This document shows positions 4,403 to 62,099 of a DNA stretch of 64,000 nt, piece after piece. Positions within the stretch are counted from its first letter, which is position 1; each line of letters opens with the position of its first letter. Made by a program: the position numbers and the translations under genes. The DNA is taken from positions 3,038,001 to 3,102,000 of the forward strand of contig JAUCEF010000014.1 of NCBI GenBank assembly GCA_033558025.1, written 5' to 3'. The notes beneath the pieces were generated by a model, which saw nothing but the letters and a program-made list of their open reading frames with translations, ran no database searches and was not told the origin of the DNA. The stretch comes from Phytophthora sp. 'mugwort' (lineage: Eukaryota > Oomycota > Peronosporomycetes > Peronosporales > Peronosporaceae).

Positions 4403-4542
4403 TACTGTATTTTGTTCACCAAGCTTTTTGTCTTGTATAATTAGAACTCAAAACTATTTTCTATGGCATATTGTGTTACTGCTTCTATCTCTAGAAGTAA
4501 ATCTAATGACCCCTACGTCTGAGCATGTACATCTCGGCCGGT

Positions 4543-4899: not shown

Positions 4900-5810
4900 T
4901 TTTTGTGGTATTGCAGATCCGGATAAGATGGAGGTTGACCGGAGCTGGGGAATCCAAGTCGCCAGCGGCAGCCATGACATTGTCAAGGTGATGGATCCGA
5001 ATCATGCGACACGCCTGTCTGTACATGGTACGGATCCTGGACCCGTCCTGTGGGATGAGATCCTAGTACCGGATCCGATCAGTTTAGTGCACCCCTCGTA
5101 GAAGATCCGTAGCTAGATGGTGGTAGAGGGGAGACGGTTGGCCAGGAAAGGGTCAGAGATGGGATCCTGGATTATAAGTAGTCCGTAGGATAGGTTTTGG
5201 GATCCGAAGGTAGATAGGCTAAGGCATAAATCAGAACCGAATTTGCACTGGAAGACAGACTCGACTATTGTATACGGGATTTCTATTGGCCCCATACATA
5301 GATCAATTCTAACTTTGGCGATCTTCCTGTACACGTGGCAGCCCCCGGATAGCTTGGCCAGGTCGCGCTCGCCCTTTGGCTTCTCAACTTCCCCTCCCCC
5401 CTCCCCCCCCTCTCAAGATCCCGTTATTGGAGGCGGCAAACATCGCAAAGGAACAAGGACAACTCCGATAAAGAGCAAGGACACACTCAAGAAGGAACAA
5501 CTCCGGATCCTGTATTTCTATTACGGATCCACAAGGTCTACGCAAGAGCTCAAGACCAAACCGACACCGGATCTCGTGCGCAGGAATACCCGCGCAGATC
5601 CACCACTCCCAAGTCCACACAAGGACGGCCAAGGCCCACCAAGTGCGCATCTCGTGTCAACGAGAGAGCAGTACTAGCCCGCCGACGGGTACATAAGGTG
5701 AACCACTCAGCAACGACACGGTCGTCGGAGTTCCCCCTCCGTTAGTCGGTGTCTGGGCGCAGTGCGTGTGAGTTGGGATCCTACTGAATTTCAGCGGATC
5801 TGCTCCACCA
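4900..5810 (+). repeat. Solo LTR of Gypsy family B, 5'-damaged
   Basis: The sequence is the reverse complement relative of the LTR at 54820-55755. Shared landmarks include the start of strong similarity at GTGGTATTGCAGATCCGG (4905), the block around 5240-5330, and the end GCTCCACCA at 5810. The first about 45 bp of the LTR are not recognisable. No internal element sequence adjoins it, so it is a solo LTR left by recombination. It interrupts an RNase H relic. It is rich in GATC, like the rest of family B. Confidence 0.8.
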
Positions 5811-19900: not shown

Positions 19901-21718
19901 AGCTGTCAGCGCGGTTGCGCGCGAGGCTACATCGATATACTCTTGATGATGACCTATTGTACCACGGTGCTGGTCCAGAAGACACCCCACGTGTCGTGGT
20001 TCCTCACAAAGAGGATCTCAAGTATCGTATCCTCTATGAGGCTCATGATACCCCATTTGTCGGTCATCTCGGCCGAGCAAAGATCTACAGCTCGGTGAGC
20101 TCCCACCACTGGTGGCCGAAGCTTTACAAGTGGGTCAGTGCGTATGTACGCACGAGTGAGACGTGTCAACGGGTTAAACCTCGCCACTCGGCTGCGCCGC
20201 TGGCCAGTTTGCCTGTACCCACAGGGTGTTGACAATCCACGAGTATGGACTTTGTGTTCGTCCTGCCACGAGATGCGGCGGGCAACACGAGCTCGTGGTC
20301 TTTGTCGACCAATTGAGCAAGATGGCTCTTTAGCGGCGGTGCCGGACTCTCATCGATGGAGAAGGAACAGCCACGCTGTTCATGGATCGTGTCGTTCGAC
20401 AGCATGGTCTGCCAGAGGCAATTGTCTCGGCTCGAGATCCCCGTTACACGGGTAAGTTTTGGACGTCGGTCTTTAAGGTGCTCGACACTCGACCCGACAT
20501 GTCCACAGCGGACCATCCGCAGACCGATGATCAGACGGAACGCGTAAATCGCGTTGTCGAAGACATGCTTCGGACTGTGTGTGTCTGTGCGGACAGACCC
20601 AAGCAATAGCGTTTTGATGCTCCCACTCGTTGAGTTTGCATTTAATATTGAGGTGCATATCTCGACAGGCTTCACCCCGTTCTATTTGAACGGTCTCAGA
20701 CACCCTCGCGTCCCGCTGACGCCACCACTCCGTGGTTCTGGGCTTAATGGGGGAGGGATAGCCGATGGGCTAGCTGATATCAGCCCAGCTGCAGTTCGCA
20801 GGCAAGTTGACACGTTCGTGTCTACGCGTTTAAGTGTCTTACGACAAGTACGCGATACGATGGCTGAAAGCCAAGATGTTCAGAAGGAGCAGGCTGATGC
20901 AAACGGCAGAAGCAACATTGAAGTGTTTAACGTTTTATTAAACGCTAAAACCTACCTACACATGCAGTGTCTGCGGTCTTTAAGACCAAGTTGCGCCCGC
21001 GCTTCATTAGACCTTTTAAGGTCGTGGCCAGGAAGGGCCTTGCGTACACGCTCAATCTTCCGAAGAAGATGCGTACACACCCCGTGTTTTACGTAGGCTA
21101 CCTTAAGCCATATCGAGACCCGGCTCGGGTGAGCGCGGAGGGTTTGGCGCCACAGCCAGTGGCTGGCTAAAGCGCAGGAGGCGCACGAGGAGGTCCAACT
21201 GACCACGTAGCTCAGCGAACGAACGGTCCAGCGCTTCGAAGCGACGAGCAGAGGCGCTGGACCGTTCGATCCTGCTCCAGAAGCTCCAGGCGGCTAGCAA
21301 CCGAGACAGGAGACTGAAGCCAGTCGACCCGATGATGCACAGCATCGATCTCGTCAGCGAGACGGTCACGGTGACTCGTCGCTCACTGCAGCGAGTCGAA
21401 CAGGGTCTGCACCCGCTTCTCGACCCCTAGCAGATCACTGCGCGAGGATCCAGCGGGTCATCGACCCCCACCGCTGTTTCTCGATGAGCAGGGAACTTCC
21501 ACTATCATGTGGAGCGCTTAGTGGCACGGCGTCGTCGCCAGGGTCGTACCCAATATCTTGTGAAGTGGAGGGGTTATCCTTACTCACATAACTCTAGGGA
21601 GTACGAGATCCCCTCGGCAAGATTGCCCTGACGTCGTGGACGCTTTCGATCGACGCGATCAGCAGAGCCCCGAGGGCCAGATACCGAGGCGTCGCTTGCC
21701 TGGCGCTTCCCGGCAATA
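17000..21718 (+). pseudogene. pol: pol of Gypsy A: protease, RT, RNase H, integrase, chromodomain
   Basis: The protease active site LIDSGTSG lies at about 17034. The reverse transcriptase spans about 18620-19130, with SALDLVDGYYQLLMR and the YFDD catalytic motif at 18907-18918. RNase H spans 19257-19760, with VVCDASDFAIGSALL and the ADALSR end. Integrase spans about 19900-20640. It keeps the two His of the zinc motif, but the first Cys reads Ser (VRTSETC), and the HPQTDDQTERVN block follows. A chromodomain (YHVERLVARRR, YLVKWRGYPYSH) lies at 21498-21631, which places the element among chromoviruses. Many stops and frameshifts break it. The 1.3-kb stretch between protease and RT (17300-18350) is a poorly conserved linker with related repeats (MRGVAGSMPG / MRGGRSWPG). 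Confidence 0.82.
19490..19556. repeat. Perfect 29-bp inverted repeat inside RNase H
   Basis: Left arm 19490-19518 and right arm 19528-19556 are exact reverse complements, separated by a 9-base loop (GGTGTGTTT). The right arm codes the conserved YDKELLAMKY segment of RNase H; the left arm is an inverted copy that adds about a dozen residues after NYPV without breaking the frame. Confidence 0.95.
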
Positions 21719-22919
21719 GCCGCTGGGAGCCAAGGCCAGCAGCAGAGCTGTCGCTCTGGTCTTGAAGAGGAGCGGCCTCACGAGCGTGAGAGCCGCTAGC
21801 TGTGACAGCAGAAGCACCGAGTGCGAGAGAGCCCTGGGGGCGAGGCCGGTAGGCAGGGGGTAATTTGCGTTTCGCTTTGAGTTCCGCAAACTCAAAACGG
21901 AGTCGACGTTCGACTCGAACATCAATTTCACTGGAACTAGCCCGAAGGGCATCAATGGAAGAGAGCTTGCGAACTCCTTCTACCCAACTTTGGAATTGAC
22001 CCTCGTCTTTCCAAGACGTCTCTCCTAACAGGAGCACGACTAAAGATAAGTCCGCACCGGTGGACCGTGCCGTGCCGAGCTTGCACTTGCAGGCGCTCAC
22101 CGTACTCGCGCTGAGTAGTCACTTGAGGAGTCAAGTATCTCTCTCTGAGAGACTCGCGCGCGGCGAGCTCGTTGGGTGTTGCGGCCGCCGGCCCAATCAC
22201 ATACGTGTTAAACAATTCCGATGCTGCTCGGCGAGCCACTTTGCTGGGATCGCGAGGCTCAAAGCCGTAGTCACGACGTGACAGGGTAAGCAATGGCCGA
22301 GCCATAGGCCGCCTCGAACGGGGTGGCTGCGGATCAGCCGCGAGCTGTTGCTCTTGGACTTCGTCCAAAGGATTGATGACGACACCAGATCCCCGGGATC
22401 ATCGGTTTTTCCCCGCGAAGGCAGCGGAGGCGCATTGCGCATGGCTCGTGGAGTCGAAAGCTCGAAAGAATCCAGTTGGCGGCGCGGGCTCGGTGAGCGG
22501 ACAGGGCTACTACCGGTCATGGACTCAGTGTAGTTGACCTCCTCTTCACCTACTTCAAGGTCGTCAAGGAGGGCGTCTCGCGGAAGACATACTGGGGCAC
22601 TACCTCCAGCGGCTTCGCCGCCTCCATTTATGCTCCTTTGACCGTATCGATGCTTGTGCGCTGAGTGATAATCTCGCACCGAGAGCCGCGAGGGTGCGGG
22701 TGGCGCATGGCCACAGACCTCTCCCGTACGGGATGACGAGGATAACGAAGGTGCCGGAGACACAGAAGGGCTTAGCCCGCAGCGAGGGCTGTTATCGCGG
22801 GGCGAAGCGAGGTCAAAAGACCAATTGGCTGTTGATAGCTGAGTGCGAACAATCGATGCGGAACAAACAGTGAAACGCTCTTGGAGCGAAAGGTTCCGGG
22901 CCTTTTTCGATTGATACAA
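21594..22919 (-). pseudogene. Antisense ORF of Gypsy A (unknown protein)
   Basis: On the strand opposite to pol, three consecutive frames give one protein-like sequence. 22919-22380 is Ser/Pro-rich with SPSPRRQLDSFELSTPRAMR. 22368-22060 reads RRDYGFEPRDPSKVARRAAS, then LAARESLRERYLTPQVTTQR. 22060-21594 reads DEGQFQSWVEGVRKLSSIDA, then VERRLRFEFAELKAKRKLPP. Two frameshifts join them; the total would be about 430 residues. The C-terminus overlaps the pol chromodomain tail to tail. A second copy occurs at 54170-54819. No family is recognised. It looks basic and helical in its second half. A gag-like or regulatory accessory role is possible but unproven. Confidence 0.6.
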
Positions 22920-49274: not shown

Positions 49275-50005
49275 TTGCATATAGCTCAGCTCATTTACCT
49301 GCATGCGGCTATCCAGGATATGTGTCCGCAACGCTGTGTCCTTTTGGTTTGTGTATAGCGCGCCACGATCCTTTCTAGACAGTACGCCGAGAGCCTGTTC
49401 ACTTTTTTAATGCGTGTGGTACGCAACCGGGCCCGAAGCCAGTTAACTTACTACTGAGGGTCGCGCGTACCCAGGCCAAACCATGGCACGCTATACATCA
49501 CCAGAACAACCAAAAGCTGTGATTTTCTCGCGAACGTTCAATAAGCAAGCCACATCAATACCACAATAGCACCCGTTGGTCCAACGCGAACCATTCGCTG
49601 TCCACGCGCTCTGTCGCCAGCGCGATCAAGCCGTCTACAACGCGCAGCGCCAGCGTGGTCAAACCACTGGCGCCGTCCATGAGCTAATGGCGGCGCGGCC
49701 ACACCACTTGCGCTGTCCACGCGCTCTGCCGCCAGCGCGATCAAGTCGCTGACGCCGTCTGCAAGTCTGCAAGCGCAGCGAGGCGTTCGGCGTTTGTTTT
49801 TGTGAATGCTTCTTTACGATACCTTTGAAATGACATATGCAAATATAAAGGTTTGGTATTGTTGGATTCGGTCCAACGAAATCGTGTGTATTGAAGCGTA
49901 CCTTGCAATTTGTATCGACATCAATCTGAACTTCACAAAAAAGGGGACAATCCATCCGACACAAGCATACAGGAGAATCTGACATGGATTGGGATGGCAA
50001 CGCTA
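49275..50005. other. Spacer between Crypton and Tc1 element
   Basis: Contains a GC-rich repeated block at 49596-49748; otherwise nothing recognised. Confidence 0.5.
49596..49748. repeat. 38-bp GC-rich direct repeat with related middle unit
   Basis: CGCTGTCCACGCGCTCTGYC and its continuation occur at 49596-49633 and 49711-49748 with two differences. A related but shorter unit (CAGCGTGGTCAAACC) stands between them. Confidence 0.85.
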
Positions 50006-50250
50006 CACCCCCGGCCAAAAGTATACGAACACCTATACTTTTGCTACTAAATCAGCTATTATTGTGCGTTGAAAACTCTGCTTTCGATATATTGTGTGGA
50101 ATACGATATGGAGCACCGGATATGTCTTAACGTTGCGGATTTAATCGTTTGAGGGGAAGCTCACATACAAACATCTGTTTTGGCTGGCGAACAAAATATA
50201 CAAACAGAATCACTGACTAGCATCTCATATAAATTCCTATATTAATTGAT
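50006..50250 (+). repeat. Left terminal inverted repeat of the Tc1 element
   Basis: About 245 bp, roughly 80% identical by eye to the complement of 51338-51581. A well-conserved inner block includes GAACAGAATCACTGAC. Confidence 0.88.
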
Positions 50251-50280
50251 ATAAAAATTTGGTGGTCAGCATTCTTTTGC

Positions 50281-51347
50281 ATGGCCCGGCGCCCACTCCT
50301 CCAAGGTCAGCACTCATTCCTCCAAGTGATGGGGAGGGGAAAAGCGCTCACAGAAGAAGAAAAAGGAAGGACCCGAGGGCTCCACGAAGGTGTTGTTGGA
50401 ATTCGCACAATCGCAACGAGGACGCACCGCTCACCTGACGCCGTAATGCGAGCACTTCGACGCTCGAAGCAGACTCGGCATGTTTGTAGGCTAGGGAGAC
50501 CACTAGCGCTCACGGAGAAGACGCTGCGACATCTGGTACGCACTGCAGCCAAGGGGAACCGCTCCGCCAGCCAGCTCAAGGACCAGCTGGCACTGACGTG
50601 CTCCGTACGCAGGGTTCGGCGCTCCATCTCGGCAGTCGACTGGCTAGTCTGCTCCAAGATGGAGAATATGTTGCAGCTGTCAGCCGCCCACAAGGCTGCA
50701 CGAATAGCGTGGGCGAAGTCGATGATTGTCCGGCCGGACGACTGGGCGCAAGTCATATTTTACGACGAGAAAAAGTGGAATCTGGACGGAGACGGCCTCC
50801 TGCACTATTCGAGAGACCTGTACCAGCCGCCGCGCCAGACGAACAGGCGGCAAATGGGCGTTGGCAGTGATGGTATGGTCCGGCTTTAGTGCTGCTGGGA
50901 AGACTGAGCTAGCTGTGCTCGCGGTGTGGCAAGCTTCAGAACACTACGTCTATACGTTGTCTGAATACTTGCTTCCCTTTGCCCATCTACAGTATGGCGT
51001 GGGCTTCATCTTCCAGCAAGACAACGCTGCGATCCACACATCGCGGGAGACCCAAGCTTTCTTTGAGGATCAGAGCGTGCAGGTAACGGATTGACCGGTA
51101 CGCTCGCCAGATTTAAATCCTATCGAGAACTTGTGGGCCATCATGTCCTAAGATGTTTACCGCAACGGCGTACAGTACGACAATGTAGCCTCTCTCATCG
51201 CGGCGTTGTATAATGCCTGGGACAACATCTCCATCGAGACCACGTCGAAGTCGATCGACTCCGTGCCTCGCAGGTGCATCGAGGTAACGAGAAGAAAGGA
51301 AACAGGACTCACTACTAATCGTACCACTCCTATTACCATCACTTAAT
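50281..51347 (+). pseudogene. Tc1-like DDE transposase with frameshift and two stops
   Basis: The first frame (50281-50889) holds two helix-turn-helix units (GRGKALTEEEKGRTRGLHEG; RNASQLKDQLAL-like) and the first catalytic Asp in VIFYDEKKWNLDG. A one-base frameshift near 50850 moves the reading to WALAVMVWSGFSAAGKTELA, then FIFQQDNAAIHTSRETQAF with the second Asp. Stops replace a Trp codon at 51093 (TD*PVRSPDLNPIENLW) and a residue near 51150. The C-terminus PRRCIEVTRRK is intact. The stop codon at 51345 lies inside the right inverted repeat. An alternative start is MGRGKAL at about 50329. Only three lesions suggest fairly recent death. Its nearest relative here is the relic at 23391. Confidence 0.87.
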
Positions 51348-51581
51348 ATAGGAATTTCTATGGGATGCTTGTCAGTGATTCTGTTCGTAAATTTTGTCCG
51401 GCAGCCAACACGTTTTTTTTATGTGAGCTCCCCCTTCGGCGCTTAAATCTGCAACATTAATACATATTCAGTGCTCCCTACCGTATTTCACACAACATTT
51501 CAAAAGCAGCGCCTTCAACTCGCAATAATAGCTGAGTAAGAAGCAGAAGTATGGGTGTTCGTATACTTTTGGTCGGGAGTG
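51338..51581 (-). repeat. Right terminal inverted repeat of the Tc1 element
   Basis: Partner of 50006-50250. It contains the last bases of the transposase reading frame, so the coding region overlaps the repeat. Confidence 0.88.
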
Positions 51582-51583
51582 TA

Positions 51584-53195: not shown

Positions 53196-54819
53196 ATGTG
53201 ATATGCTCTCCACTCGTTGAGTTTTCATTGGACAAAGCGGTGCATGCTTCGACAGGCTTCACCCCGTTCTACTTGAACGGTCTCACACACCCTTGCATTC
53301 CGCTGAAGCCACCACTTTGTGGTCCTGGGCTTAGTGGGGAAGGGATAGCCGATGAGCTAGCTGATATCAGCCCAGCTGCAGTTCGCAAGCAAGTTGACAT
53401 GTTCGCGTCTACTTGTTTAAGTGTATTAAGACAAATACGCGATGCGATGGCTGAAAGATGTTCAGAAGGAACAGGCCGATGCAAAGGGCAGAAGCAACAT
53501 TAAGTGTTTATGGTCGGTGACAAAGTTATTAAACGCTAAAAATCTACCTACACATGCAGTGTCTGCAGACTCTAAGACCAAGTTGCGCCCGCGCTTCCTT
53601 GGACCTTTTAAGGTCGTGATCAGGAAGGGCCTTGCGTACACGCTCAATCTTCCGAAGAAGATACGTGTACACCCCGTGTTTTACGTAGGCTTCCTTATGC
53701 CGTATCGAGACCCGCCTCGGGTGAGCGTGGAGGCCTTGGCGCCACAACCGGTGACTGGCCAAAGCGCAGGAGGCGCACGAGGAGGTCCAACTGACCACGT
53801 AGCTCAGCGAACGAACGGTCCAGCGCTTCGAAGCGACGAGCAGAGGACTGCTCTAGGAGCTCCAGACGGTTGGCAACCGAGGCAGGAGACTGAAATCAGT
53901 CGACCCGATGATGCACCTCATCGATCTCGTCAGCGAGACGGTCATGGTGACTCGTTGCCCACTGCAGCGAGTCGAACAGGATCTGCACCCGCTTCTCGAC
54001 CCCTAGCAGATCACTGCGCGAGGATCCAGCGGGTCATCGACCCCCACCGCTGTTTCTCGATGAGCAGGGAACTTCCACTATCATGTGGAGCGCTTAGTGG
54101 CACGGCGTCGTCGCCAGGGTCGTACCCAATATCTTGTGAAGTGGAGGGGTTATCCTTACTCACATAACTCTAGGGAGTACGAGATCCCCTCGGCAAGATT
54201 GCTCTGACGTCGTGGACGCTTTCGATCGACGCGATCAGCAGAGCCCCGAGGGCCAGATACCGAGGCGTCGCTTGCCTGGCGCTTCCCGGCAATAGCCGCT
54301 GGGAGCCAAGGCCAGCAGCAGAGCTGTCGCTCTGGTCTTGAAGAGGAGCGGCCTCACGAGCGTGAGAGCCGCTAGCTGTGACAGCAGAAGCACCGAGTGC
54401 GAGAGAGCCCTGGGGGCGAGGCCGGTAGGCAGGGGGTAATTTGCGTTTCGCTTTGAGTTCCGCAAACTCAAAACGGAGTCGACGTTCGACTCGAACATCA
54501 ATTTCACTGGAACTAGCCCGAAGGGCATCAACGGAAGAGAGCTTGCGAACTCCTTCTACCCAACTTTGGAATTGACCCTCGTCTTCCCAAGACGTCTCTC
54601 CTAACAGGAGCACGACTAGGTAAGTCCGCACCGGCGGACCGGGCCGTGCCGAGCTTGCACTTGCAGACGCTCACGATACTCGCGATGAGTAGTCACTTAA
54701 GGAGTCAAGTATCTCTCTCTGAAAGACTCTCGCGCGGCGAGCTCGTCGGGCGTTGCGGCCGCCGGACCAATAACGTATGTGTTTTAAGCAACTCCGATGC
54801 TGCTCGGCGAGCCACTTTG
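53196..54819 (+). mobile_element. Truncated copy of Gypsy family A
   Basis: Matches 20620-22250 of the complete element closely. On the plus strand it holds the integrase end (STGFTPFYLNGLTHPCIPLK, ADISPAAVRKQVD), the linker and the chromodomain (about 54070-54207, YLVKWRGYPYSH). On the minus strand it holds the antisense ORF. It starts abruptly near 53196 and stops at 54819 exactly where the LTR of family B begins, so B inserted into it. TTG-to-TGG junction: CACTTTG then TGGTGG. Confidence 0.85.
54170..54819 (-). pseudogene. Second copy of the Gypsy A antisense ORF
   Basis: Minus frame 54631-54170 reads DEGQFQSWVEGVRKLSSVDA, then VERRLRFEFAELKAKRKLPP, nearly the same as at 22060-21594. Upstream (54819-54640) the reading VARRAASELLK also matches, but with a frameshift and a stop. 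The family B LTR cuts off its N-terminal half. The two copies differ by few bases over the last about 460 bp (for example SSID/SSVD and WKD/WED). Confidence 0.62.
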
Positions 54820-55755
54820 TGGTGGAGTGGATCCACTGAATTTTGGTAGTATCCCAACTCACACGCACTGCGCCAGATACCGACTAACAGAGGGGGTACT
54901 CCGACGGCCGTGCAGTTGCTGAGTGGTTCACCTTGTGTACCCGTCGGCGATCTGGTACTGCTCTCTCGTTGACACGAGATGAGCAATTGGTAGACCTTGG
55001 ACGTTCTTGTGGGGACTTGGGAGGGGGTGGATCTGCGCGGGTATTCCTGCCCACGAGATCCGATGTTGCTTTGGTCTTGAGCTCTGCGTAGACATTGTGG
55101 ATCCGTAATAGAAATACGAGATCCGGAGTTGTTCCTTCTTGAGGTGTCCTTGCTCCTTATCGGAGTTGTCCTTGTTCCTTTACGATGCTTACGCCTCCAA
55201 TAGCGGGATCTTGAGGGGAGGGGGGGATGAAATCAAAGGGCGAGCGTGACCTGGCCAAGCTATCCAGGGGCTGCCACGTGTGCAGGAAGATCGCCAAAGC
55301 TTAGACTTGGTCTATGTATGGGGCCAATAGAAATTCCCTATACTATAGTCAAGTCTGTCTTCCAGTGCAAATTCGGTTCTGATTTATACCTTAGCCTATC
55401 TACCTTCGGATCTCATCCCGAAGCCTATCCTACGGACTACTTATAACCCAGGATCCCATCTCTGACCTATTCCTGGCCACCCGTCTCCGCTCTACCTCCC
55501 TTTAGATACGGATCTTCAACCCGGTGTGCACTAAACTGATCGGATCTAGTACTTAGACCTTAACCACGGGACGGATCCAGGATCCGTACCATATACAGAC
55601 CTGACGTGTCGCATGGTCTGGATCCATCACCTTGACGCTGTTATGGCTGCCGCTGCTGACATTGATCTTCTGGCTGCCGGTCAACTTCCATCTTATCCGG
55701 ATCTGCAATACCACAACCGCCCTTGACACGTTGTGACCACGGCGCAACGGTAACA
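54820..55755 (-). repeat. 3' LTR of Gypsy family B
   Basis: 936 bp; read on the minus strand it starts TGTTACCGTTG and ends CACTCCACCA. A related solo LTR lies at 4900-5810 in the opposite orientation. About 19 GATC sites occur where about 4 are expected by chance. Confidence 0.82.
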
Positions 55756-55817
55756 CCCTTTGTCACGTGATCCACACTTCAACCCACCGCCGTCTACCCA
55801 GATCAAGCTTCTTTACC

Positions 55818-58738
55818 ATGTTATCTGCCCACCACGCCCATGACTCTGACGCCACGCCTCGCGCTGCCGTATTCGCCGGGCAAGGTCTGTCTCCGGACAC
55901 TCCTCCTCCATATGCGCACTGTGACCACGCGCCGTCGGATCCTTCAGCGGCGGCAACTCCGGTGGTGCTGGATCTATCCGCTGCGAGCCGGGGCAAGGTC
56001 TATCCACACCTTCGTTGGTGCCTACGACGAGTTGCTGGCCAAGCATCAGCAAGCCCTGCGGGATCTGGTTGCTGCGCGCCGCCACAACGAAGAACTCCAC
56101 ACGTTGGCCAAGCCCAACTGGACGACTGCGCGCTCGTTCGTGGACTTCGTCCAGCACCGCTACGACGTTACCCAGGGGCGACTTCGTCAAGTCACGCAGC
56201 TTGAAGCCGAAACGCGTCAAGAAGCTGACCGTCTCCGCGTGGAGGTCCAGGGTTTCGGCTATCTGCGGCGCACTACGCCTTGCTAAAGAAACCAGCGCGG
56301 AGGCGTATACCCGCCTGCAAGACTATGCCCTCGGTCTGGAGCGTCGCTTATATCTGACCATGGTAGTGCCGCGCCAGCCGATCCGCCCAGGGCTGCCCCT
56401 TCCCTTGCGCAGGATCTGCAGGATGAAGCGACCGGGCTGAGGCAGCGATCCACCGACCTCGAGCAGCAGTGTCAAACCGCTCAATCCGAGCGTGACGTGG
56501 CGTTCAGAGGTCTCTTTCGCCTTTGAAGGACCAAGCGGATCTTCAGTGTAGCCACGAGCAGCGGAAGCAGCATGTCCGTGATCTGGAACGTGAAGCTCAG
56601 TGACTGCGTGAAGAACTACACCAAGTGCACCAACGGCTCGACGGATCGGTGCCTGTGGCAGATCTGTATGCTGCACGGATCGAGCTGCACGCCCGAGGTG
56701 AGCGGATTCTCGAGCTAGAGGGTTTTCTTGACAAGGCTGAGCGTCGCCGTGCAGATCTTCACAGGGTTCACAATCATACCGTGGGTAAGCTAGATGTTGA
56801 CCGAGAAGAGATCGAGCGCCTGAAGCGTTCGCTGGGAGCAGCTGATCGGGATTACGCGCCTGCCGAAGATTCACTGCACATGACTGAATACCAGCTCCGT
56901 AATCTCCCCGTGGATCACAAGACACTCGAAGCTGCTCGCGACACGATCACTCAAGAACTCAAGGGGACCCAGGGTCAGGTGCCCAGTGCGAACACCAAGA
57001 TCTGCGCCGGCGCTCAAGATCGGCGGGATCTGGAGTTTACGGTGGCCCAACTGACTCAGCTCGCCAGCGGCGCGATCAGGCGCGCCTGGACCTCGACAAT
57101 GGTATGCAGGAGGGGCAGAAATATTTCAAGGCCCAGAGAGATCTCCTTGAGCAGATCTCCGACATGCAGCAAGCGTACCAGCTGGTCCGCCAACATCTCG
57201 ATCGACTCGGCGGTCAGCACGAGCTTCTGTCGCAAGATCACCAAGGCCTCCTAGGCAAGCACGACTCGGCCGTCATGGAGCGGGACAGCGCTCTCGACAG
57301 CTTAGTGTCGCTCGCCTCGGCCACCATGCGGAGTTCGTCGGTGGGACGTAGCGGTCGGTCTAATTCCATGGCTCGCAGTGACCAGGCTTCTTCCAAGAGG
57401 CTCTTGAGTCCACCCGCTTCTCCTCCCTACGAGGATCCGAGCCCGCCGAAGAAGGTGCCTCGTTCCTCATCCCTGCGGTGGATGGCGCAACTACCTCCGG
57501 ATTGGCCTCGAAGGTGCCTTCAGTCCAACCAGGATCCTCGTTGGATCTCTTGTTGACGCCGCGGCTGAGGTCGGTGATGGAGACTATGACTTCCCCGGTA
57601 CAGGATCTGGATCTAGCTCCGATCCCGGTTCCAGCTCTAGCAGTAGTGGATCCGACAATGACGAACTCCAACTGGCTCTGGCGCGATCCCGGTCGACGCA
57701 GTTTTTCTGCGGAGATCTCCGGTGGAGCGGGATCTCAAGTTACGCCCATCGTGGTCGACCAAGATCCGAACTCCGCTGAAGCGCGGAGGAAGATATGGAT
57801 GGCGCGATCCAGGCGGCCGGTACACCCGATCCTACCCTTTCTACCGTTACACCCGCCACGGATCCCGCTTCCCAGCCGTTCGATTCTGAGGACAGTTTTC
57901 TCCCCGGCTTCCATCAGCCGCGGGTCGTGTCGCGGACGGGGTAGCACATTGGGATCCTTCCCAAATTAGTGTGCTTACCCTCGATACCCTCACGCCCCGA
58001 ATCCTGATCGACAACCGGGTTCTCCCGGCCGGGTGGATGTTTCCTGAGCGTACCAGTCGTGGGGGGCAACTGGAGCCTTCGCGTTACGCTCCGGGCTTGC
58101 TCATGAAGGAGAACAACCTGGCGCTGTACAGGGGGGAGCCGTGAAAGGCCTTGACGTATCAGCCTTGGAGCCGCTGGCTTTTGATCCAGCCAGATCCGCC
58201 GACGTGGCAGCGCTTGCAACGAGCTATCGGGCCTACGAGGAGGATCACCGTCAGGCATACGGGAAGCTAATCATTCCTTCCCGATCCCAAAGTCCGAGCG
58301 CGATGCGCACGCGTGGTTCGCGTTTTTTTACCATGGGCGCAAGAATCGGAGCTCGCACGCTCGCGCAAAGTTCCGGATCTACAAGATCAGATCTTCGAGA
58401 AAGCTTGCCGGACGGGCTGCTGCGACCTGAATTTTCTGCTAGATCCGGTGTTCATGCGTTTTCTTTTGCGGTCCGAAGACGGAGTGGTCGCAGAGGGACG
58501 GGATCCGCCCCAAGATTTGATCGCGGCTCTCGTGGACTGTGACAGGAGCGCCTCGTGGCACAATCACTTCAGCATGGATCCGACTTCTCCGTCTCGACTT
58601 CGCCCCCCCCCCTCTTTTAGCTCTCGATTCCAACTGTCTTCAGGTAACCAGCGCCTCGTCGAAGTCGAGACGATCCGCCTCATCAACGGATCTCACAGGC
58701 TTCAATTTGGACACATGCACCACCGGAAAAGGTGGTAA
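55818..58738 (+). pseudogene. Antisense ORF of Gypsy B: long coiled-coil protein
   Basis: Reading opposite to pol from an ATG at 55818 (MLSAHHAHDSDATPRAAVF), successive frames join into one protein of roughly 950 residues. AYDELLAKHQQALRDLVAAR is followed by VTQLEAETRQEADRLRVEVQ, then LQDEATGLRQRSTDLEQQ, then LELEGFLDKAERRRADLHRV and REEIERLKRSLGAADRDY, then YQLVRQHLDRLGGQHELLSQ. This is a heptad-rich coiled coil. A Ser/Pro-rich segment follows (SSSVGRSGRSNSMARSDQAS, SSDPGSSSSSSGSDNDE), then a C-terminal block (EKACRTGCCDLNFLLDPVFM). At least six frameshifts or stops break it. Its end overlaps the end of pol tail to tail. The function is unknown. Confidence 0.62.
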
Positions 58739-60200
58739 TATGTTCCGGCTGTCTCCGATCGAGCAGCAAAAGGTTGCACCATCTCCAACACTCGGAAGGG
58801 ACCATGCCACATATGCGCTAGCCTCCGCGCGTATCCTTCCTTGACTCGATCCAGATATAGCCACACTCGAGTGCCGACCTCGACCCGATGCGGATACACG
58901 CTGTCATTGTGGCGTTCGACCCGATCCGTAATAGCCTTCTTCAACTTCTCGTTCACGTCTGCTCTCGCCTGCCGGTAATAGCGCTGGATTCGGTACCGCC
59001 ATCGGTGTGGATCCCGATCTCGGCGTCTCGTGCTGCCCAGCGGGAGAGTTGCCTCTAGCGTCGTGCGTGGATCCCAACCGTGCGCAAGATAAAACGGGGT
59101 GTCACCTCGGATCCGATCATGTGCCGTGTTGATAGCGAACGTCAGGCGCTTTGCGTACTCGTCCCAGTCGCGCTGGTTCTCGTCCTCGACATACCTCTTG
59201 ATGGATCTCGTCACCGTCTGCACCATACGTTCCGCAGTCTCGTTCGCCTGAGGTCTATAAGCCATGGCGGCTCGCTGTCTCTGACCCAGGATCCGATTGA
59301 ACACCTTGAAGAAGTCAGACATGAAGACAGACTCCCCGTCATGCTGGATCACCTCGTTCGCACCGAAGCGTCGGAACACAAATTCCTCGTAGGTTTCCAC
59401 GATCATTTGGGCTGTCCGGGACGCACTTGCATTGACGAAGACGTAACCGGTGAGCAGATCCACCCAGATTAGGAGCTCCGTGTGGCCCTGTACGACTTGG
59501 GCAGCGATGGGACGTGATCCATCGCTATGACTTGGAAAGAGTAGGTGGCCTGGATATTGCTGGGTGACTCGCCATGTATGGTCGGTCGCTCCTTGCCGGT
59601 CTCGCAATTCACGCATTCACATACGAACCGCCGTACGCTCTGAAAAGTCCACGCCAATAAAAGTGATCCCGGATCCGGTGATATGTTCGGCTGATCCCCC
59701 GATGACCGCCCTCCCGGCTGACGTGGTAGTGATGCAGTAGATCTTCGTGCAGTGTCTCGTGCACGACCAGACGAAGCAACCCGTCTCTCTTTTCCTCCAC
59801 CTTCGCAGACGGCGGTAGTAGTAAGTAGATCCTACTATAGTCAGCAGCCACGATGCTGCACACCCGAGCTTCGTCTTTTTCAAGATCCTTCACATCCTCC
59901 CGAAGGTACTTCTTGAGGTTCATGGTCCACGTTTCTTCGTCTTGAGTTTGTCGGATCCGATCCACTCTCAGCTGGCGGACCGCCTCTTCGTGCAGCACAC
60001 TGGGTCTGGTGACCTTCCGGCGGGATCTAGTCGCCATGGCTGCAACGCGAAGCGTACTACCCTCAACAGCTGGGTCAGGATCTCGGGTACCCGATTGAGC
60101 GTCACCAGATCCTTCAGTATCTGGTCGTCCGTCACTTCTGTACCTGCTTCCCACTGTAACGCCGCACTCGCCAGACTTCCTGTGCTTGCGTTCCATACTC
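58640..60200 (-). pseudogene. pol: Integrase of Gypsy B
   Basis: The HHCC zinc motif is present across two frames (HYHVSREGGHRGISRTYHRI, then VCECVNCETGKERP). The catalytic core follows, with AMDHVPSLP (first Asp), VIQHDGESVFMSDFFKVF (second Asp) and YRPQANETAERMVQTVTRS (Glu). The C-terminal region has YPHRVEVGTRVWLYLDRVKE and HMWHGPFRVLEMV. Past a frameshift near 58730 the tail continues as VVHVSKLKPVRSVDEADRLD to about 58640. No clear chromodomain is seen. Frame breaks at about 59610 and 58730 make it inactive. Confidence 0.82.
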
Positions 60201-60299
60201 GCTTGACACGAAGCAGGTCGTGATCCGGCCAGGATCTCAGACGGTGTAGAGCTCTTTGCCGCAACAACGTCAACACGGGAGCTTTACAGTCGATCTCGC

Positions 60300-62068
60300 C
60301 CTTCATCTGTCGGGTCACCAAATTGGAGTCCCCAGTCCACCGTACTTCGCCTCGTTGACCGTCATATCTTCTGCCCATACTGATTCCGCCTTGACCACCG
60401 TCCACTCGGGCAACCTCCACACGATAGCGTTGAAGGCGCCTCCGCCGCGTTTGACTTGGGCGGATCCATCGAAACTAGCGACCAGGAGTTCCTCGTCGGG
60501 CTTTACTGTAGGGATCGGAGTCTGTACTGCTCGGCGGGGCTCTTTCCGCGGTGCAATTGCTACCAGCGCCTGATCCACTATCGATCGTGGCGTTACACAC
60601 GCAGCCAGCGATCCCAAGATCTCATCCTCGCTTTTCGTGCACTTAGTGATCTCTAACGTCCAGGGCGATAGCAGCGCGGCCCATTGCCCAAGACGCCCTT
60701 GGAGCCCTGCGGCGCGGAAAAGCCAGGCCAGCGTCGAGTGCAGCGTCAGGATCTTGATTGATCTGCAGACCAACATCGAATAACCCAGATCCAGCATACG
60801 TAGCAGCGCTAGCACTTCCTTCTCACGACGCCGTAGTTCAACTCGTTCGACTTCAACGTGCGGCTCGTGAACATCACGGGCAAGTATGTGCCGTCGTGAT
60901 CCTGCACCAGGGAGGCGGACACTGCCCACTCGCTGGCATAGACAATCAGCACAGGCTGTTTGTCCGGATCAAAGTGTCGGAGGATCGGAATCGTCGCAAT
61001 CTTGTTCTTCAGTGTGGAGAACTTTGCTCTAGCTCGGATCCACTTCGGCTCTGACGCCTCCGGATCTTGATCGAACTGGGGGTCCCCGCCTTCGAGGATC
61101 TCCCGGCCTATCTTCCCTTCGTTGACAGCAATCCCGCTCTCAGCACGCATCGCGGCGAAATCCACTTCTCGCAGCTCGTACAACACCGACGCGTACACCG
61201 CCATGTCTTCAACAAAGCGTCCGTAGTAGTTCAGACTACCCAAGACCGACTGCATAGACCGTTGCGATCTCGGGAATGGCAGATCCACCAGCGCACTGAG
61301 ATCCTTTGGATGAGCCTCCAAGCCTTCGATGGATACACGATGTCCGAGGTAATCTACCTTCTTCAGTCCCCAGAAACGCTTCGCGACACTGATCGAGATA
61401 TTCCACTTGTCACAGGCGGCGAGCAGGAGCTTCACTCGATAGCACATATAATCCCAGGATCCGGTCGTGACAAGGATGTCATCGATGTAGGATCGACGCC
61501 CAGTACGGAAGGTTCACCTACTTCCTCCGGATCTCCTCCTTCGAAGATGTCCGTTGAGGATCCTCGATCCGCTGCTGGTGGGATCCGCAAGAAGCCGTAC
61601 AGTGCGTAGTCGATCAGTCTCTGGTAGATCTGTGGGGCGTTCTCCAATTCAATTGGCATCTGGTTCCACTCAAACAGGCCAAATGGCGTGGTGAATGCCG
61701 AGATGGCATGAGCGCGATCCGTCATAGACACAACCCAGAAGCCACTCGCCATATCCAGCGAGCAATACCACAGCACCTTGTCCAGATCCTCAAGCGGATC
61801 GTTGATCAGGGGCATCGGGTAGACAATCAGCTTGGTGAGACCGTTGACCAGGCGGTAATTAATACACAACCTTATGTCCACAGCATTCTTCTTAATGATC
61901 ACCACGATTGGTGAGACCCACTGAGACGTTGAGTGTCGTATGATCTTGGCCGAAAGTTGTCCCTTGAGCAGATTCGATACCTTCTCGCGGAACTGAGGGG
62001 CGATCTTTCGCACACGTTGTGCGATTGGGGTGGGCCTTTCCAACGTCGATGTCACACACCACGCCTAC
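60300..62068 (-). pseudogene. pol: Reverse transcriptase and RNase H of Gypsy B
   Basis: The minus strand begins VVCDIDVGKAHPIAQRVRKI and runs through fingers and palm: VSPIVVIIKKNAVDIRLCIN, WYCSLDMASGFWVVSMTDRA with the first catalytic Asp, and YIDD at 61489-61478 after a frameshift. The thumb and first RNase H follow (GLKKVDYLGHRVSIEGLEAH; LIVYASEWAVSASLVQDHDG). Then come REKEVLALLRMLD and a second RNase-H-like segment (LVASFDGSAQVKRGGGAFNA, IVWRLPEW) near 60480-60330. At least two frameshifts occur (about 61480 and 60840). Confidence 0.82.
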
Positions 62069-62099
62069 AACCGACCGACACGCCGAGTGCGAACAAGGT

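What the first reader, a model, noticed from the sequence alone, without database searches (positions are those of the whole stretch)
55818..58738. Long antisense coiled-coil ORF between integrase and 3' LTR in Gypsy family B
Seen: the strand opposite to pol encodes heptad-rich, low-stop sequence for almost 3 kb, from a good ATG just inside the LTR to a stop that overlaps the pol C-terminus. Known: a few plant Gypsy lineages carry extra, sometimes antisense, ORFs near the 3' LTR. Inference: family B carried an extra gene with its own promoter near or in the 3' LTR, convergent with pol. Such a protein could be a structural or regulatory partner of the element, or a captured host gene.
Basis: partly seen in the sequence, partly recalled or inferred. 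Interest (0 to 1): 0.75.

Follow-up and report, generated by a model that had tools for sequence, protein, structure and literature searches.

The report
Antisense gene in an oomycete retrotransposon
A repeated jumping gene in what appears to be an oomycete (water mould) genome carries an extra protein gene that reads in the opposite direction to its other genes and was kept by natural selection, much as some plant jumping genes carry backward genes in the same place.

Summary
The window has a decayed Gypsy copy: 3' LTR 54818-55715, and on the + strand an antisense gene from an ATG at 55818, 102 bp inside the LTR edge. A deletion of about 767 bp near 58588-58607, relative to other copies, removes the gene's last codons, so the 'stop overlapping pol' is an artefact; elsewhere the gene and pol converge across about 0.5 kb. 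This copy has 14 frameshifting indels.

The gene is real. In frames fixed by homology to P. sojae proteins, dN/dS among 20 copies is 0.50 (0.43-0.58), close to the pol tail (0.46); other frames give 0.64-1.00. Of 176 frameshifting indels, 148 sit in one copy only. Divergent families keep it, around 40% identical in the C-terminal domain, in the same layout. Database relatives are hypothetical proteins of three Phytophthora species.

The element resembles Chronos (second RNase H, chromodomain). Plant Retand, Grande and RIRE2 have antisense genes in the same place; the Retand TRP28 domain was not found here. Best explanation: a nuclear accessory protein that aids or regulates transposition. That function is inferred. 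Eight searches of open-licence papers showed no earlier description.

The parts
54818..55715 (-). 3' LTR, 898 bp, TGTGG...CCACA ends; 98.0% identical mate at C14:3278097-3279000 with ACTT beside both outer LTR edges
55716..55817 (.). 102 bp between the LTR edge and the antisense ATG; possible site of antisense promoter or leader (inferred)
   Evidence: sequence
55818..58587 (+). antisense gene, broken by 14 frameshifting indels and cut at its 3' end by a deletion
56020..57440 (+). coiled-coil part of the antisense gene (approximate limits, over several frames)
   Evidence: frame pieces; long helix in the model of 56604-57254; heptad periodicity in database relatives
57890..58587 (+). conserved C-terminal domain (P0001 residues 669-882 match window 57983-58603)
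58588..58607 (.). place of the deletion of about 767 bp relative to L002 (end of the gene, spacer, most of the chromodomain)
58608..62072 (-). 3' part of pol, broken: RT end, RT RNase H, second RNase H, integrase
60150..60510 (-). second RNase H (approximate; placed by motifs; in this copy no Pfam match, the open frame of copy L024 matches RVT_3)

Best explanation
The stretch is a decayed copy of a genuine accessory gene of a Chronos-like Gypsy retrotransposon, antisense to pol and lying between the end of pol and the 3' LTR. SHOWN: it coded for a protein (coiled coil, charged linker, conserved C-terminal domain; relatives of 569-893 aa); it was under purifying selection about as strong as the pol tail; most breaks are private to single copies; divergent element families of the genome keep it in the same convergent layout; relatives exist as predicted proteins in three Phytophthora species. 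INFERRED: it is transcribed from a promoter in or beside the 3' LTR, into the element; the protein assembles through its coiled coil, enters the nucleus, and acts through its C-terminal domain on element nucleic acid, integrase or chromatin, to regulate expression or to help nuclear entry or integration. That is the kind of role proposed in print for the plant antisense genes.
For: dN/dS 0.50 (0.43-0.58) in frames fixed by outside proteins, pol tail 0.46 (0.37-0.57); third-position excess of shared variants on the + strand, P=1.2e-4; 148 of 176 frameshifting indels in one copy only; + frame protein matches in 4 of 4 divergent loci read; four predicted proteins in other species; 33 of 40 pol-tail places with the gene on the expected side; K/R-rich runs in P0003 and P0004; nuclear localisation and own promoter reported for plant Grande (PMC7264820).
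Against: No transcript or protein data. K/R-rich runs by the same count are absent in P0001 and P0002. 7 of 40 pol-tail places had no gene found. The segment test gave the lowest dN/dS to a - frame in 4 of 12 segments, and the spacer also showed some third-position excess. The C-terminal domain has no known match and no confident model. The database relatives are gene models: P0001 departs from P0002 in one stretch just before the C-terminal domain in a way that may be a model or frame error.
Confidence: 0.6

Rival explanations
1. The antisense RNA is what matters: it pairs with element RNA and feeds silencing or self-limitation; the protein is secondary.
For: PMC7264820 raises this for plant elements; small RNAs of both strands map to Gypsy elements in P. 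infestans (PMC3522703, passages).
Against: Selection acts on the amino-acid frame, which an RNA function would not need.
Confidence: 0.1
2. The protein is structural (a second, Gag-like or particle component), expressed from the opposite strand.
For: Coiled coils can build assemblies; a Chronos-like element is otherwise complete, with gag-side and protease sequence in L026.
Against: No Gag, zinc-knuckle or envelope match; charged linker and K/R-rich runs in two relatives fit a nuclear protein better (inference).
Confidence: 0.1
3. A host gene captured by the element, still acting as in the host.
For: The four database relatives are annotated as ordinary hypothetical proteins; their DNA context was not seen.
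Against: In this genome 19 of 20 copies lie beside the LTR and 16 of 20 beside the pol tail, and the 4 divergent loci read have convergent pol parts. I searched this genome for further relatives but did not read every one.
Confidence: 0.1
4. No gene: a chance open stretch in G+C-rich DNA, or a shadow of coding on the other strand.
For: Both strands are rather stop-poor here; - strand frames of up to 207 aa occur; between-family matches also occur - to - (227 of 729 HSPs, best 94 bits, against 169 bits + to +).
Against: Frame-specific constraint on the + strand, private breaks, predicted proteins in other species.
Confidence: 0.02

Closest known systems
Chronos Ty3/Gypsy elements of oomycetes (PMC5348765, passages and section 5 read)
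   Same: Second, archaea-like RNase H after the RT RNase H; chromodomain after integrase; relatives of the antisense protein are in Phytophthora (Peronosporales)
   Different: The word 'antisense' does not occur in that paper's main text; its supplements and figures were not seen
Retand elements of flowering plants (PMC11963269, passages and sections 3 and 12 read)
   Same: Antisense ORF(s) between pol and 3' LTR; 11 Smc-type domains counted among their antisense ORFs
   Different: Plant antisense ORFs mostly encode TRP28 (PF04195), not found in the four relatives; Retand is a non-chromovirus lineage, while this element has a chromodomain
Grande gene23, RIRE2, PvRetro13, fungal Boty (PMC7264820, parts 1-2 of 3 read)
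   Same: Antisense extra ORF between pol and 3' LTR; Grande's has its own promoter and is nuclear; PvRetro13's has an SMC-type domain
   Different: Plant and fungal hosts; no sequence comparison with these proteins was made here beyond Pfam
HBZ of HTLV-1 (named in PMC11963269)
   Same: Antisense gene of a retroelement with a nuclear protein
   Different: Functional parallel only, drawn by the plant papers; not compared by sequence

Membership tests
Chronos LTR retrotransposons | Dual RNase H: RT RNase H followed by an archaea-like RNase H with arginine at the active site | tested here: met
   RT_RNaseH; second domain RVT_3 E=4.7e-4, just under its cut-off, and best solved-structure match ST0753 E=3.6e-5 with R facing R. 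That this R is the active-site one is my reading
Chronos LTR retrotransposons | Chromodomain after integrase | tested here: met
   PF00385 in 4 of 4 open frames tested from L009, L012, L013, L016, E=2.6e-5 to 1.9e-4, scores just under the cut-off; mostly deleted in the window copy
Chronos LTR retrotransposons | Position in the Chronos clade of the RT tree | not tested
   No Chronos reference sequences were fetched
Chronos LTR retrotransposons | Host in Peronosporales or Pythiales | tested here: inconclusive
[quoted passage not shown]
   33 of 40 pol-tail places; 15 of 20 best copies with both neighbours
Retand-type antisense genes | TRP28 domain (PF04195) | tested here: not met
   No match at E up to 0.1 in P0001-P0004 or in the window pieces
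SMC proteins | Full-length family match with ATPase heads | tested here: not met
   TIGR02168 and TIGR02169 match coil stretches only, 12-33 bits against cut-offs of 567 and 729

The most novel reading that the evidence does not exclude
An oomycete protein family, unrelated to the plant TRP28 genes, arose independently in the same place and orientation, in elements that also acquired a second RNase H independently of plants: elements with dual RNase H repeatedly evolve an antisense accessory gene because the two traits serve one retrovirus-like way of replicating.
Probability: 0.25. Interest if true: 0.78.

Novelty: new variant of a known kind. Interest (0 to 1): 0.6.

Why it matters
Antisense accessory genes of LTR retrotransposons have a known position but no established function, and the cases in the papers I read are mostly plant. 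A separate protein family in oomycetes gives a second system in which to ask what they do. With the second RNase H and the chromodomain it adds a further point of likeness between oomycete and plant retrotransposons, so it can be tested whether the antisense gene and the second RNase H travel together. Practically, some 'hypothetical proteins' in Phytophthora annotations are probably transposon genes.

Tried and rejected
Two protein searches with the coil piece of the window found nothing; the third, with the open C-terminal stretch of a divergent locus, found four relatives. Mismatch rates by coordinate phase were too noisy to use. IMG/VR has no match to six exact peptide patterns of P0001, a weak test of a viral origin. 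The structure model of the window coil has confident helices only in its first part (mean pLDDT 57.9); that of P0001, from a 4-row alignment, is poor (mean pLDDT 46.9), so no fold search was run. Rejected: overlap of the antisense stop with pol; TRP28 or SMC membership. Papers searched without finding this gene: (open-licence PMC only). The P. infestans 'Albatross' Gypsy element is named in passages of PMC3522703, but its structure was not found.

Full report
Setting. The element runs on the - strand: 3' LTR at 54818-55715, pol at higher coordinates; homology to the other copies read stops at 62072-62073. A 98.0% identical LTR (14 mismatches, 2 gaps in 905 columns) lies at C14:3278097-3279000 on the same strand with a primer-binding-like site beside it, and ACTT stands beside both outer LTR edges. 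I infer one insertion, now split by about 185 kb. A more compact copy on C8 has LTRs at 1056912 and 1068478-1069371, 98.1% identical, with GTGG on both sides; the site beside its inner LTR edge reads like the 3' end of a tRNA (that reading is mine).

The observation. Its end is not natural. Aligned to L002, the window jumps from L002 4319 to 5087, so about 767 bp are missing at about 58588-58607. From query position 2779 (window 58596) to the start of the pol query (58750) the window has 153 bp; the 12 other places whose DNA match reaches 2767-2779 have 878-932 bp. The missing stretch holds the last codons of the gene (homology to P0001 runs to its residue 892 of 893 at L002 4365), a spacer of about 0.5 kb, and the end of pol with most of the chromodomain (pol frame ends at L002 4873). 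In the divergent locus L032 the open antisense frame ends at 4473 and the open pol frame at 4934.

Is it coding? (1) P0001-P0004 match L002 and the window copy in + frames only at E up to 0.01. In frames so fixed (461 codons of L002, 20 copies, all pairs) dN/dS is 0.50 (0.43-0.58); shifted + frames 0.93 and 0.96; - frames 0.88, 1.00 and 0.64, the last sharing its third positions with the coding frame; the pol tail (239 codons) 0.46 (0.37-0.57). The intervals resample codons and ignore the relatedness of copies. (2) With the frame chosen by fewest stops alone, sites where at least three copies carry the second base are 9.9, 9.7 and 14.8% at codon positions 1, 2, 3 of the + strand (P=1.2e-4); on the - strand 13.1, 11.4 and 9.9%. 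Against a clean picture, the spacer gave some excess on the + strand too (P=0.0097 and 0.032), the pol tail was weak in this test (P=0.025 and 0.28), and the LTR control gave no data there. In the first segment test the lowest dN/dS of six frames was a + frame in 8 of 12 segments and a - frame in 4; the LTR control gave 0.73-0.89 in every frame. (3) Of 176 frameshifting indels 148 are in one copy, 21 in two, 7 in three or four; sharing is heaviest in L014 and L015 (10 each) and L009 and L013 (5 and 6).

Relatives. The C-terminal piece finds divergent loci down to 39% identity. Four were read. L032, L034 and L035 are 90-91% alike in DNA; L033 stands apart. At E up to 0.01 the matches of the window pieces are all in + frames: N-terminal part 38-42% (3 of 4 loci), coil 26-38% (3 of 4), second coil piece 29-53% (2 of 4), C-terminal domain 39-42% (4 of 4), tail 35-48% (3 of 4); two of the tail matches lie past the deletion, opposite pol. 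Weaker matches, two of them on the - strand (E=0.45 and 0.78), look like chance. All four loci have pol parts on the - strand, converging. Pol pieces are 58-80% identical between the families, so the antisense protein changes faster than pol. Between-family matches - to - also occur as a shadow (227 of 729 HSPs, best 94 bits against 169). In the protein database four relatives turned up: P0001 and P0002 (P. sojae, 893 and 569 aa), P0003 (P. palmivora, 826 aa), P0004 (P. ramorum, 883 aa), all named hypothetical. They are gene models whose DNA I did not see, so I cannot say that their frames are unbroken. The best match of P0001 in this genome is 56% (51 of 317 candidates scored).

Distribution. 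The gene's DNA gave 47 matches from 40 scored of 115 candidates. Of 40 pol-tail places (40 scored of 96 candidates) 33 have the gene within 6 kb on the expected side and strand, and 7 have none found. Of L001-L020, the best-scoring copies, 19 have the LTR just upstream, 16 the pol tail, 15 both.

What the element is. Copies give aspartyl protease, RT, RT RNase H, a second RNase H (RVT_3, E=4.7e-4; best solved-structure match ST0753, E=3.6e-5, with R of VKRAWN facing R of VPREEN), integrase and chromodomain; several of these scores lie just under the curated cut-offs, as expected of decayed copies. PMC5348765 describes Chronos by a dual RNase H with an archaea-like second domain and a chromodomain, in Peronosporales and Pythiales, and aRNH by an arginine in the active site. 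The features tested fit; the RT tree was not made.

What the protein is. In P0001 all 12 windows of 120 residues starting at 81-301 have heptad periodicity that 0 of 200 shuffles reach; the others have comparable stretches. Runs of at least 5 K/R in 8 occur in P0003 and P0004, not in P0001 or P0002. NCBIfam gives SMC coil matches far below cut-off; Pfam gives generic coils and no TRP28. The C-terminal domain keeps WESTH and G-CDLD--LD motifs in all four and has no known match.

How it probably works. Antisense genes at this place are known in plant Retand, Grande, RIRE2 and PvRetro13 and fungal Boty; Grande's has its own promoter and is nuclear, PvRetro13's has an SMC-type domain, and 11 Smc domains were counted among Retand antisense ORFs; the authors suggest a regulatory or nuclear role (PMC7264820, parts 1-2 of 3; PMC11963269, passages and sections 3 and 12). 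I infer the same kind of role. That is likeness of working; membership in the TRP28 family was tested and not met. Passages of PMC10508981, PMC11541908, PMC12477816 and PMC3522703 were also seen; they mention no such gene in Chronos.

Novelty. Eight searches of the open-licence library showed no antisense gene of this kind in oomycetes; subscription papers, supplements and Repbase were not seen.

Noticed in passing
window 50004-51583: A 1.58-kb unit with inverted repeats (168 nt at 82%, 74 nt at 88%) around a broken transposase-like frame with a weak Tc3 helix-turn-helix match (E=0.018): looks like a Tc1/mariner-type element.
   Followed up: partly
window 54000-54822 and 21424-22247: 96.9% identical stretches in direct orientation just beyond the LTR: another repeat family at the insertion site.
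   Followed up: no
G000 C14:3100073 to 3278097: The two LTRs of what seems one insertion are about 185 kb apart, with the same 4-bp repeat outside: later insertions or a rearrangement inside the element.
   Followed up: partly
G000 C17:72597-84207 and 102353-113977: Two copies with identical scores, 29,756 bp apart, suggest a duplicated segment; C9:2711120 and C9:2722227 look like an inverted pair.
   Followed up: no
L001 (window copy), antisense gene against LTR pair: 14 frameshifting indels in 2.8 kb of the gene but only 2 gaps in 905 columns between its two LTRs: LTR conversion, older breaks or assembly errors could explain it.
   Followed up: no
P0001 residues about 640-670: Differs from P0002 just before the conserved C-terminal domain in a way that may be a frame or gene-model error in the database entry.
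   Followed up: no
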